The position numbers and the translations under genes were made by a program. From Kitasatospora mediocidica KCTC 9733 (GTDB lineage: Bacteria > Actinomycetota > Actinomycetes > Streptomycetales > Streptomycetaceae), in contig NZ_JQLN01000005.1 in the NCBI RefSeq assembly GCF_000744225.1, forward strand, positions 1 through 64,000: 64,000 bases of DNA, written 5' to 3'. The notes beneath the pieces were generated by a model that searched no databases, was not told the DNA's origin, and saw only the letters and a program-made list of their open reading frames with translations. Positions 56,245-60,294 of this stretch are shown in pieces. The first letter of the stretch is position 1; every line of letters starts with the position of its first letter.

Positions 56245-58485
56245 ATGGACCCCATGGACCAGCCCGAGCCGCACGCCACGTCCCCCGCCCCAGCCGCCTC
56301 CGCCCCAGCCTCCGCCGACCTCGCTCCCACCCCCGCCGATCGTGCGGCGGCCCGCGCCCGCGCCGAGGCGGTGCTGCGAGAACTCGCCGGCCCCGCGGCC
56401 CAGCTGCGCGAGGACCAGTGGCTGGCCATCGAGGCGCTGGTCCTGGACCGCCGCCGGGCGCTGGTCGTCCAGCGCACCGGTTGGGGCAAGTCGGCCGTCT
56501 ACTTCATCGCGACCGCGCTGCTGCGCGCGGCCGGCTCGGGCCCGACGGTGATCGTCTCGCCGCTGCTCGCCCTGATGCGCAACCAGGTGGACTCCGCGGC
56601 CCGAGCCGGTATCCAGGCCCGCACGATCAACTCCGCCAACCCGGAGGAGTGGGACGAGATTCAGGCCGAGGTCGCGGCCGGCTCGGTGGACATCCTGCTG
56701 GTCAGCCCCGAGCGGCTGAACAACCCCGACTTCCGCGACCAGGTGCTGCCCAAGCTCGCCGCCTCCACCGGCCTGCTGGTGGTCGACGAAGCGCACTGCA
56801 TCTCCGACTGGGGACACGACTTCCGGCCCGACTACCGCCGACTGCGCACCATGCTCGCGGAGCTGTCCCCCGGCGTCCCGGTGCTCGCGACCACCGCGAC
56901 CGCCAACGCCCGGGTGACCGAGGACGTCGCCGAGCAGCTGGGCACGGCCGGCTCCGACGGCCGTGCCCTGGTGCTGCGCGGCCCGCTGGACCGCGAGAGC
57001 CTGAGCCTCGCCGTGCTCTCGCTCCCGGATCCGGCACACCGCCTGGGCTGGCTGGCCGACCACCTGGACGAGCTTCCGGGTTCGGGCATCATCTACACCC
57101 TCACGGTGGCCGCCACCGACGAGGTCACCGACTTCCTGCGCGGTCGAGGCTTCCCGGTCGCTTCGTACTCGGGCCGGACCGAGGACGCCGAGCGGCGCAG
57201 CGCCGAGGCCGATCTGCTGGCCAACCGGGTCAAGGCCCTGGTGGCCACCTCCGCGCTGGGCATGGGCTTCGACAAGCCGGATCTGGGCTTCGTGGTCCAC
57301 CTCGGCTCGCCCGGCTCCCCGATCGCCTACTACCAGCAGGTCGGCCGCGCCGGGCGCGGGGTGGACCGGGCCGAGGTCCTGCTGCTGCCCGGCCGCGAGG
57401 ACGAGGCGATCTGGCGCTACTTCGCCTCCCTCGGGTTCCCGCCCGAGGAACAGGTCCGCCGCACCCTCGCCGCCCTGGAGGAGGCCGGCCGGCCGCTCTC
57501 CACCGCGGCCCTGGAGGCCCGGGTGGACCTTCGCCGCGCCCGTCTGGAGACCATGCTCAAGGTGCTGGACGTCGACGGCGCGGTCCGCCGGGTGCGCGGC
57601 GGCTGGCTCGCGACCGGCCAGAGCTGGGCCTACGACGGCGAGCGCTATGCCAAGGTGGCCCGCGCCCGCGAGGCCGAGCAGCAGGCGATGCGCGAATACG
57701 CGACCAGCGACCGCTGCCGGATGGAGTTCCTGCGCCGTCAGCTGGACGACGAGGAGGCCACCGCCTGCGGCCGTTGCGACGTCTGCGCGGGTCCGCGACT
57801 GAAGCCGGACGTCTCCGCCGAGGCGCTGGACGCCGCCCGGGCCGCCCTGGGCCGCCCTGGTGTGGCCTTCGAGCCGCGCAGGCTCTGGCCGACCGGCATG
57901 GACTCGCTGGGTGTGCCGCTCAAGGGCCGGATCCCGGCCGGCGAGCAGGCCCAGTCCGGCCGTGCCCTCGGCCGGCTCTCCGATATCGGCTGGGGCGGCC
58001 GGCTGCGCACCATGCTGACCGCCGGCGCACCGGACGCCCCCGTACCGCCCGACGTGCTGGACGCGCTGGTCACCGTGCTGGCGGACTGGGCGCGTGGCCC
58101 GGGCGGCTGGGCCGGGAGCGGCCCGGAGACCGCCCGGCCGGTGGGCGTCGTCACGATGGCGTCCGCCTCCCGGCCCGAGCTGGTCGCCAGCCTGGGCGCC
58201 CGGATCGGGGCGATCGGCCGGCTCCCGTTGCTCGGCCGGGTCGAGTACGCGGACGGCCGCGCGCCGCAGGGCGCCCGGAGCAACAGCGCGCAGCGCCTGC
58301 ACTCGCTGGCCGGGTCGCTGGTGCTGTCCCCCGGGCTCGCCGAGGCCCTCGCCGCCACGCCCGGGCCCGTCCTGCTGGTGGACGATCTGGTCGACAGCGG
58401 CTGGACGGTCACGGTGGCGGCCCGGCTGCTCCGTCGGTCCGGCGCCGCAGCCGTGCTGCCCCTGGTGCTGGCGGTGCAGGGGTAG
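56245..58485 (+). CDS. RecQ-family helicase fused to a phosphoribosyltransferase-like domain
   Basis: 746 residues. Superfamily 2 helicase core (about 50-410): Walker A QRTGWGKSAVY (K82), VDEAHCISDWGHDFRPDY, ATTATANARV, ALGMGFDKPDLGFVVH and QQVGRAGR. A zinc-like CGRCDVC follows near 490. The C-terminal part (about 530-746) contains ALGRLSDIGWGGRLRTML, then RSNSAQRLHSLAG and the PRPP-binding-type loop VLLVDDLVDSGWTVTVAARLL (about 709-729), as in ComF-like phosphoribosyltransferases. ATG 56245 has no clear ribosome binding site; ATG 56254 is an alternative. Confidence 0.88.
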   Translation: MDPMDQPEPHATSPAPAASAPASADLAPTPADRAAARARAEAVLRELAGPAAQLREDQWLAIEALVLDRRRALVVQRTGWGKSAVYFIATALLRAAGSGPTVIVSPLLALMRNQVDSAARAGIQARTINSANPEEWDEIQAEVAAGSVDILLVSPERLNNPDFRDQVLPKLAASTGLLVVDEAHCISDWGHDFRPDYRRLRTMLAELSPGVPVLATTATANARVTEDVAEQLGTAGSDGRALVLRGPLDRESLSLAVLSLPDPAHRLGWLADHLDELPGSGIIYTLTVAATDEVTDFLRGRGFPVASYSGRTEDAERRSAEADLLANRVKALVATSALGMGFDKPDLGFVVHLGSPGSPIAYYQQVGRAGRGVDRAEVLLLPGREDEAIWRYFASLGFPPEEQVRRTLAALEEAGRPLSTAALEARVDLRRARLETMLKVLDVDGAVRRVRGGWLATGQSWAYDGERYAKVARAREAEQQAMREYATSDRCRMEFLRRQLDDEEATACGRCDVCAGPRLKPDVSAEALDAARAALGRPGVAFEPRRLWPTGMDSLGVPLKGRIPAGEQAQSGRALGRLSDIGWGGRLRTMLTAGAPDAPVPPDVLDALVTVLADWARGPGGWAGSGPETARPVGVVTMASASRPELVASLGARIGAIGRLPLLGRVEYADGRAPQGARSNSAQRLHSLAGSLVLSPGLAEALAATPGPVLLVDDLVDSGWTVTVAARLLRRSGAAAVLPLVLAVQG

Positions 58486-59517: not shown

Positions 59518-60180
59518 TCAGGCCCGGACGGACTGTCCGCCGACGGCCTGGTGTCCGGCCAGTCCCGCCGTGGCGCCGCAGACCAGCAGCAGCGCACCCG
59601 CATGGGTGAGCGCCTTCTGCAGCGCCTGTGTCGCACGGGCCGCCGACGCACCGTCGAGGACCAGCACGACGACCTCGCGGCGGAACGAGCGGGAGGTCGC
59701 CAGGTCCGCGTAGAAGACGTCGGTGCCCTCGGCCAGCTGCGCCCAGTAGTGCTGCTCCCCGAAGGAGAGTTCGTGCTGGTGCCACGGATGCGGCGTGCTC
59801 GCGGTCAGCACCAGGATGTCGCCGGGGTCGCGCCCCGACTCCAACAGCTGGTCGACCGCCTCGTCCGCGCGGTCCAGGGCTGCGGCCGGGGTGGACGGCA
59901 GCAGTTGGACGGTCGGGCCGGCCGGGGCCCGGCGCGGTCCGGGCATCGGGATCTGCGCCGCACGCGGACCGGGCCGCGGCGGGCCGGGGCGCGGCGCCGC
60001 GGGGCGCGGCGGTCCGGGCCGGGGCCCGGGGACGGCAGCGCCCGCAGGGGCGGGGTGGACAGGGGAAACGCCGCCGGCGGCAGGCGTGCTGGGGGCTTGT
60101 GCGTCCGACTCGCGGGGGAAGGGAACGCCGGGGCCCGGGATGCTCTCGTGAATCTCCGGCTCCTCGGGGAAGACAGGCAT
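59518..60180 (-). CDS. Protein of unknown function, Pro-rich N-terminus and helicase-tail-like C-terminus
   Basis: 220 residues. Residues 15-95 are a disordered Pro/Arg/Gly stretch (RPGPPRPAAPRPGPPRPG). The C-terminal 120 residues fold: ADEAVDQLLESGRDPGDILV, HQHELSFGEQHYWAQLAEG, DVFYADLATSRSFRREVVVL. The last segment resembles the C-terminal strand-helix of superfamily 1 helicases where a protein checks for a trigger, but no ATP site is present. Start ATG 60180. It precedes RNase HII by 114 bp in reading direction terms (rnhB lies upstream on the same strand). Confidence 0.7.
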   Translation of the reverse strand: MPVFPEEPEIHESIPGPGVPFPRESDAQAPSTPAAGGVSPVHPAPAGAAVPGPRPGPPRPAAPRPGPPRPGPRAAQIPMPGPRRAPAGPTVQLLPSTPAAALDRADEAVDQLLESGRDPGDILVLTASTPHPWHQHELSFGEQHYWAQLAEGTDVFYADLATSRSFRREVVVLVLDGASAARATQALQKALTHAGALLLVCGATAGLAGHQAVGGQSVRA

Positions 60181-60294
60181 ACCCGGATATCTATCAAATG
60201 CCGGTCGGCTGCGCACGGGCGCCCCACCTGTTGGACGCCCCGCAGACGACTCGATCGGCGCAGCGCACCGGCACCGACCTGCGCTGACCGTCCG

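What the first reader, a model, noticed from the sequence alone, without database searches (positions are those of the whole stretch)
56245..58485. Helicase fused to a phosphoribosyltransferase-like domain
A complete RecQ-type helicase is followed by about 200 residues ending in the PRPP-loop pattern VLLVDDLVDSGWTV and ComF-like RSNSAQR. The combination suggests a helicase that reads or modifies a nucleotide or DNA end, or senses PRPP. I know no described function for this fusion. With two unknown genes and rnhB nearby, it could belong to a genome-maintenance set handling RNA-DNA hybrids.
Basis: partly seen in the sequence, partly recalled or inferred. Interest (0 to 1): 0.6.

Follow-up and report, generated by a model that had tools for sequence, protein, structure and literature searches.

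The report
Partner-less RqlH helicase with phosphoribosyltransferase-like tail
This is a known kind of bacterial DNA helicase, RqlH, whose tail resembles nucleotide-building enzymes; here it lacks the antitoxin-like partner found elsewhere, and its tail lacks lysines that partner-bearing versions keep, which may be why it needs no partner.

Summary
In detail: window 56245-58485(+) encodes 746 aa, a RecQ motor, a four-cysteine zinc module and a PRTase-like tail with VLLVDDLVDSGWT. The fusion is not new. It is RqlH (M. smegmatis, 2012), also called PsyrT (PADLOC PsyrT, 710 bits, residues 37-744); in E. coli (2015) its PRTase-dependent toxicity is restrained by the DprA-like partner RqlI. The modelled tail (pLDDT 90.6) resembles ComFC and the toxin ShosT. 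RqlH is near full length in 117 of 119 Streptomycetales genomes, and no locus read there has RqlI beside it. The proposed set with rnhB is not supported: rqlH is inverted against the 58776 gene in 16 of 62 loci.

New here: comparing 30 RqlH with, and 90 without, an adjacent RqlI, Lys676 in the PRTase flexible loop is present in 26/30 and 0/90, Lys594 in 27/30 and 4/90. The window protein has neither. In tree-corrected contrasts Lys676 ranks first of 678 columns (7 of 9 with, 0 against); on well-supported branches alone the test is too small to be significant. Best reading: a repair helicase whose PRTase domain still binds PRPP or a nucleotide but has lost the toxic activity. That mechanism is inferred, not shown.

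The parts
56245..58485 (+). rqlH (psyrT-like): RecQ-like helicase with C-terminal PRTase-like domain, 746 aa
   Evidence: PADLOC PsyrT 710.4 bits, residues 37-744 of the protein, 5-683 of 689 in the profile
56410..57357 (+). RecQ-family SF2 motor (DEAD 56-227, Helicase_C 277-371)
   Evidence: Pfam; NCBIfam TIGR00614 221.8 bits, cut-off 219.8; solved RecQ 4q47 E 1.7e-54
57655..57786 (+). four-Cys zinc module (Cys 491, 508, 511, 514)
   Evidence: Pfam RecQ_Zn_bind 23.8 bits, cut-off 25; each of the four Cys in 90 of 90 solo and 27 of 30 paired RqlH
58129..58482 (+). PRTase-like core (residues 629-746); the modelled C-terminal piece starts at residue 511
   Evidence: AF2 model pLDDT 90.6, pTM 0.86; ComFC 7p0h Z 12.6, ShosT 8zvd Z 10.6
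58024..58026 (+). codon of G594, where most partner-bearing RqlH have Lys
   Evidence: Lys in 27/30 paired, 4/90 solo; profile alignment puts that lysine at the ComF 'lKY' lysine
58270..58272 (+). codon of G676 in the flexible loop, where most partner-bearing RqlH have Lys
   Evidence: Lys in 26/30 paired, 0/90 solo; loop between strand 152-158 and helix 171-178 of the C-terminal model
58276..58296 (+). RSNSAQR (678-684), end of the flexible loop and start of the next helix
   Evidence: N680 in 30/30 paired and 80/90 solo
58369..58410 (+). PRPP loop VLLVDDLVDSGWTV (709-722), RqlH form with Trp720
   Evidence: intact Asp-Asp in 30/30 paired and 78/90 solo; W720 in 30/30 and 89/90

Best explanation
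The gene is the partner-less actinobacterial form of RqlH (PsyrT family), a core gene in the Streptomycetales sampled. Family identity is nearly certain. Shown by others for orthologues: the motor is a 3'-5' DNA helicase (M. smegmatis; restated in PMC4670107), and the PRTase domain makes E. coli RqlH genotoxic unless the DprA-like RqlI is present. Inferred here: the partner-bearing PRTase domain is an active enzyme, probably acting on PRPP or the nucleotide pool as reported for ShosT. Where RqlI was lost, the PRTase lost the flexible-loop lysine K676 (and usually K594) but mostly kept the aspartate/Trp PRPP loop. The solo domain, as in this window, would then bind PRPP or a nucleotide and couple the helicase, in recombination or repair, to that ligand without being toxic. 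The 0.5 is for this whole mechanism.
For: Family: PsyrT 710 bits over residues 37-744; 41% identity to an E. coli plasmid RqlH whose gene is followed by a DprA gene. Fold. Core gene: near full length in 117 of 119 Streptomycetales genomes. No partner: the own genome has only a DprA-like match of 107.3 bits, about 105 kb from the gene; 4 paired genomes have partners of 253-296 bits; in 14 solo genomes (the window's included) the best match is 108.2 bits. Lysines: discovery set K676 13/14 paired, 0/68 solo; second set 13/16 and 0/22, Fisher 1.0e-7. Tree-corrected, all branches: 9 contrasts, 7.0 with, 0 against, rank 1 of 678 columns. Looser constraint on the solo tail: at helicase identity 50-55% the C-terminal identity is 44.3% among paired and 33.1% among solo proteins. 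PRPP loop largely kept in solo proteins: Asp-Asp 78/90, W720 89/90. In E. coli the D663A change in the PRPP pocket abolishes the growth, SOS and filamentation effects (PMC4670107 passage).
Against: No ligand, activity or toxicity was measured for any solo RqlH. treekit on well-supported branches alone gives 5 contrasts, 4.3 with and 0 against, p 0.06-0.25, not significant. K676 has no conserved ComF counterpart in the profile alignment, so a catalytic role is argued from loop position only; it could contact RqlI instead. 4 of 30 paired proteins lack K676 (2 Arg, 1 Asn, 1 Ser) and 2 of 9 contrasts show no difference. K668 follows the partner only weakly (22/30 and 5/90; 1.1 of 5 supported contrasts). 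The faster-evolving solo tail also fits simple decay; 12 of 90 solo proteins lack the intact Asp-Asp. In E. coli the helicase domain also restrains the PRTase (motor-dead K49A and D148A raise SOS and lower viability), so loss of toxicity need not lie in the PRTase alone.
Confidence: 0.5

Rival explanations
1. The lysines K676 and K594 belong to the RqlI-binding surface. They disappear with the partner because nothing is left to bind, and the PRTase activity of solo RqlH is unchanged and tolerated for other reasons.
For: RqlH and RqlI interact physically (PMC4670107 abstract and discussion). The co-loss pattern itself cannot tell binding from catalysis.
Against: K676 lies in the PRTase flexible loop, which closes the ligand pocket in ComFC (passage), and K594 aligns with a ComF lysine, although ComF proteins are not RqlH. 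The whole solo domain is less conserved, not only two sites.
Confidence: 0.2
2. The solo PRTase tail is a decaying remnant with no ligand; the protein works as a plain RecQ-like helicase.
For: Lower C-terminal conservation in solo proteins, and 12 of 90 solo proteins without the intact Asp-Asp.
Against: W720 is kept in 89 of 90 solo proteins; D713 and W720 are kept in 80 of 80 named loci; the fold is confidently predicted.
Confidence: 0.2
3. Solo RqlH is an active genotoxic PRTase kept in check by an unlinked regulator or by low expression.
For: E. coli RqlH is toxic without RqlI, and Russell & Mulvey list more distant regulators as one possibility.
Against: Absence of the lysines tracks absence of the partner; no partner above the DprA background in the 14 solo genomes searched.
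Confidence: 0.1

Closest known systems
Mycobacterium smegmatis RqlH (MSMEG_5935), clade named by Ordonez, Unciuleac & Shuman 2012
   Same: RecQ-like motor, tetracysteine zinc module, ComF/PRTase-like C-domain (recalled); 3'-5' unwinding and absence of RqlI (read in PMC4670107).
   Different: Different species. The published biochemistry concerns the motor (recalled). That paper is not held and was not read.
E. coli RqlH with RqlI (Russell & Mulvey 2015); its orthologue PsyrT of Pseudomonas syringae PsyrTA (Sberro et al. 2013, known to me only as cited)
   Same: Same protein family end to end: 41% identity to an E. coli plasmid RqlH, PsyrT profile 710 bits.
   Different: No DprA-like partner here. 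K594, K668 and K676 of most partner-bearing forms are G, Y and G. Present in nearly all Streptomycetales sampled, whereas the one E. coli allele searched, at near identity only, occurs in 53 of 5426 genomes.
ComFC (with ComFA) of natural transformation
   Same: Highest VIA-align Z (7p0h, Z 12.6, but rmsd 8.3 over 181 residues). One-to-one profile comparison with 17 ComF sequences: solo tail E 4.3e-19, partner-bearing tail E 1.6e-22.
   Different: ComFC is a separate small protein with its own zinc finger and the PRPP loop DDIITTGTT; RqlH has DDxxDSxWT behind a RecQ motor.
ShosT of the ShosTA toxin-antitoxin system
   Same: PRTase toxin with a DprA-type antitoxin; structural match 8zvd Z 10.6. 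Reported to act as phosphoribosyltransferase and pyrophosphatase on purine metabolism (one passage of a review, PMC12593503).
   Different: Structural match is to the PRTase part only; the review describes no helicase in it; it has an antitoxin.

Membership tests
RqlH/PsyrT protein family | RecQ-like motor | tested here: met
RqlH/PsyrT protein family | four-Cys zinc module after the motor | tested here: met
   Cys 491, 508, 511, 514 present; RecQ_Zn_bind just below cut-off
RqlH/PsyrT protein family | C-terminal ComF/PRTase-like domain | tested here: met
   fold and structural matches; profile match of the solo tails to ComF
RqlH/PsyrT protein family | end-to-end homology to known members | tested here: met
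   PsyrT profile, residues 37-744, 710 bits; 41% to an E. coli RqlH encoded beside a DprA gene
RqlH/PsyrT protein family | ATP-dependent 3'-5' translocation and unwinding | not testable with these tools
   needs biochemistry
PsyrTA / RqlHI two-gene toxin-antitoxin or defence system | adjacent DprA-like antitoxin gene | tested here: not met
   best own-genome match 107.3 bits, about 105 kb away, at the background of the other solo genomes; no DprA-like gene in the held flanks of 80 of 80 named actinobacterial loci
PsyrTA / RqlHI two-gene toxin-antitoxin or defence system | toxicity of the RqlH protein | not testable with these tools
   needs expression in a laboratory strain
Partner-bearing form of RqlH (sequence type defined here) | Lys at 676 and 594 | tested here: not met
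   G676 and G594 in the window; both Lys together in 24 of 30 paired and 0 of 90 solo proteins. The window has R678 two residues on, so a basic residue elsewhere in the loop is not excluded
Type I PRTase fold | PRTase fold | tested here: met
Type I PRTase fold | PRPP-loop signature with two acidic residues | tested here: met
   VLLVDDLVDSGWT, a variant with Trp720
Type I PRTase fold | PRPP binding and transferase activity | not testable with these tools
   needs purified domain
Canonical RecQ | HRDC domain at the C-terminus | tested here: inconclusive
   no HRDC match among Pfam families at E 0.1, and the place is taken by the PRTase domain; absence from a scan is not proof

The most novel reading that the evidence does not exclude
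Partner-less actinobacterial RqlH is a domesticated toxin. Repeated loss of the DprA-like antitoxin went with loss of flexible-loop lysine(s), turning a genotoxic PRTase-helicase into a housekeeping repair helicase gated by PRPP or nucleotide levels. This would answer why Gram-positive bacteria tolerate RqlH without RqlI.
Probability: 0.35. Interest if true: 0.65.

Novelty: new member of a known kind. Interest (0 to 1): 0.42.

Why it matters
Russell & Mulvey (2015) found it surprising that nearly all Gram-positive bacteria with RqlH lack RqlI, and reported no major sequence differences between RqlH with and without it (PMC4670107 discussion). The lysine pattern found here gives that question a concrete, cheap test: two residues in one domain. 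It could also separate partner-less RqlH from PsyrTA-type systems in defence annotation, where the PADLOC PsyrT profile matches the window protein strongly (710 bits) although partner-bearing ones score higher (934-1019 bits).

Tried and rejected
Genome-maintenance operon with rnhB: rejected. Of 62 loci that hold the 58776 homologue, 46 have the window's arrangement and 16 have rqlH inverted; 18 of 80 lack that gene, 17 of them outside Streptomycetaceae. Some held flanks are short.

Phage origin: the C-terminal domain has no match in 50,697 phage records at E 1e-5. In IMG/VR, 18 loci matched the whole-protein alignment and two (L150, L151) match over residues 39-746.

Other partner-linked columns: K668, Q684 and N687 separate paired from solo RqlH in raw counts but hardly or not at all in tree-corrected contrasts (K668 and N687; Q684 in the smaller tree), so I do not rest on them. 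Loss of D714 is seen only in solo rows but is too rare for a contrast. The first, smaller tree gave only 2 supported contrasts.

A sequence search of the PDB with the C-terminal profile gave weak matches, PRPP synthetases best at E 0.0013; neither ComFC nor ShosT is among the 60 of 79 hits shown.

Phage defence by this family: one held paper that deleted and overexpressed PsyrTA in an E. coli isolate saw no protection under its conditions (PMC12409345, passages).

Selection of rows. Discovery set: 87 rows, of which 14 paired, 68 solo and 5 unknown for lack of downstream DNA. It holds the window protein, six plasmid loci, L150, 60 loci chosen by hand from the listed hits, and 19 of the 80 named loci; L151 was left out. 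12 of those 60 genomes and the six plasmid loci had already been seen in alignment A1. Second set: 40 loci chosen by hand from the hits, fragments mostly left out, before their loops were read: 16 paired, 22 solo, 2 unknown. One paired label (L270) rests on a 61-bit match cut by a contig end, another (L246) on 131 bits. The 112-row tree drops 5 partial or badly diverged rows and thins 10 solo rows. The two sets share lineages, so the second is separate but not fully independent. Partner absence was checked over the whole genome in 14 solo genomes only, some of them incomplete.

Full report
WHAT IS THERE. Residues 56-371 are a RecQ-family motor (NCBIfam recQ_fam 221.8 bits, cut-off 219.8; solved RecQ 4q47 E 1.7e-54). 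Residues 471-514 match the RecQ zinc module just under its cut-off. The tail has only a short sub-threshold Pribosyltran match (709-737), yet AlphaFold2 gives a confident model for residues 511-746 (pLDDT 90.6, pTM 0.86, 28 sequences). Foldseek lists PRTases (1vch first, E 4.5e-4; 2 hits at E 0.001 or better). VIA-align puts ComF/ComFC 7p0h first (Z 12.6, rmsd 8.3 over 181 residues), then ShosT with phosphate (8zvd, Z 10.6, rmsd 3.8, 165 residues); the other 48 rows shown, PRTases and related PRTase-fold proteins, have Z 8.6-9.9. The full-length model has mean pLDDT 84.8.

WHAT IT IS. PADLOC's PsyrT profile covers it end to end, 710 bits, and an E. coli plasmid protein 41% identical to it is encoded next to a DprA gene. 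This is the RqlH family. Ordonez, Unciuleac and Shuman (2012) described M. smegmatis RqlH; that paper is not held, so its domain layout and motor biochemistry are recalled, while its title appears in reference lists. Of Russell & Mulvey 2015 (PMC4670107) I saw the abstract, passages, section 15 and part 1 of the discussion. There, E. coli RqlH causes SOS induction and filamentation without RqlI. Deleting the PRTase domain, or D663A in its putative PRPP pocket, removes the growth and SOS effects, with a modest effect on viability remaining for D663A. The PRTase alone is not toxic, and motor-dead mutants raise SOS and lower viability, so the helicase domain also restrains the PRTase. Deleting both genes had no detected fitness cost. 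RqlI has a DprA-like region. In their survey Streptomyces have RqlH only. They name PsyrT of P. syringae as an orthologue. Passages of PMC5512222 and PMC9122126 place the system beside ComFA/ComFC and its DprA-type protein among antitoxins.

NO PARTNER HERE. In 119 Streptomycetales genomes 117 have one near-full-length match; in G015 it is partial and in G045 it is in pieces, both fragmented assemblies. The own genome has one full-length copy and no RqlI, only a DprA-like protein about 105 kb away. None of 80 named actinobacterial loci has a DprA-like gene in its held flanks. A PsyrA search of 18 whole genomes separates cleanly: 4 paired genomes have partners of 253-296 bits besides lower DprA matches; 14 solo genomes (the window's included) have nothing above 108.2 bits, and one of them no match at all. 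The 119 genomes were not each searched for RqlI.

NEIGHBOURS. Homologues of DUF4192, the 58776 gene, the 59518 gene and rnhB occur in 52, 62, 59 and 60 of the 80 named loci, only in Streptomycetaceae, and rqlH is inverted against the 58776 gene in 16 of 62. I take the arrangement as inherited chromosome order, not an operon.

PAIRED AGAINST SOLO. I fetched further loci and labelled each by a DprA-like gene just downstream. Discovery set: 14 paired, 68 solo: K676 13/14 against 0/68, K594 13/14 against 2/68, K668 13/14 against 2/68. Second set: 16 paired, 22 solo: K676 13/16 against 0/22 (Fisher 1.0e-7), K594 14/16 against 2/22 (1.3e-6), K668 9/16 against 3/22. Combined: 26/30 against 0/90, 27/30 against 4/90, 22/30 against 5/90. 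The window has G676, G594 and Y668. Other columns, some in the helicase, also differ (G378 28/30 against 13/90), as expected of related groups.

RELATEDNESS. On a quick tree of helicase columns only (112 rows) the partner label needs at least 9 changes, at least 5 of them forced by well-supported branches. On those branches alone K676 goes with the partner in 4.3 of 5 contrasts and never against, p 0.06-0.25, not significant. With all branches my own pairing script gives 9 contrasts, 7.0 with, 0 against and 2 without difference, first of 678 columns (mean net 0.34, SD 1.41); K594 gives 6.66 with and 1.00 against. A two-sided sign test on seven of seven would be p 0.016 (by hand), but K676 was chosen on part of these data and weakly supported branches are used.

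CONSTRAINT. At helicase identity 50-55% the C-terminal domain is 44.3% identical among paired and 33.1% among solo proteins; the gap narrows at higher identity (48.4 against 43.4 at 60-65%). Asp-Asp 713-714 is intact in 30/30 paired and 78/90 solo, W720 in 30/30 and 89/90. A one-to-one profile comparison matches the paired tail to ComF (17 sequences) at E 1.6e-22 and the solo tail at E 4.3e-19, and puts K594 on ComF's 'lKY' lysine; K676 has no conserved ComF counterpart.

MECHANISM. Shown by others: 3'-5' helicase activity (M. smegmatis), PRTase-dependent genotoxicity and its restraint by RqlI (E. coli), PRPP binding by ComFC (PMC9005727, passages), and disturbance of purine metabolism by ShosT (review PMC12593503, one passage; the original was not seen). 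Shown here: family membership, predicted fold, absence of the partner, and absence of K676 wherever the partner is absent. Inferred: that K676 is needed for the toxic PRTase activity, and that the solo domain is a ligand-binding regulator.

NOVELTY. The fusion, the family and solo occurrence in Streptomyces are known. I found no report of the lysine difference in the searches made: 12 held papers with RqlH and helicase, 13 with PsyrTA, 4 with PsyrT and helicase. Of these I saw passages of PMC4670107, PMC5512222, PMC9122126, PMC13316683, PMC12278908, PMC12409345, PMC10287943, PMC9005727, PMC12593503 and PMC10482375; the rest only as listings. PMC4670107 says that no major differences were detected. 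Most subscription journals are not in this library.

Noticed in passing
L064 (E. coli plasmid NZ_OX030731.1) 5956-9473; L067 (Acinetobacter plasmid NZ_CP090068.1) 5959-9488: RqlH plus DprA pairs sit inside defence operons: between type I restriction S and R genes in L064; in L067 after BREX pglX, with a DUF262 gene between the pair and pglZ.
   Followed up: partly
   Followed up: no
L069 and L150 (RqlH of Sinorhizobium pSymB and of a viral contig): These RqlH lack the zinc-module cysteines although a DprA-like gene follows and the three lysines remain.
   Followed up: no
window 59518-60216 (-): Uncharacterised 232-aa gene between the 58776 gene and rnhB, without a Pfam or NCBIfam match; its C-terminal part recalls the end of SF1 helicases without a motor (impression, not tested).
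   Followed up: no
L102, L103, L108, L109, L111, L112, L114-L116, L118, L119, L121, L122, L124, L128, L132: rqlH is inverted against its neighbour in 16 Streptomycetaceae loci whose proteins look alike at their ends (by eye); one old inversion or a replacement by a related copy.
   Followed up: partly
L065 (Halanaeroarchaeum plasmid NZ_CP008875.1) 5938-8019: A haloarchaeal plasmid encodes a full-length RqlH without a DprA-like gene nearby.
   Followed up: partly
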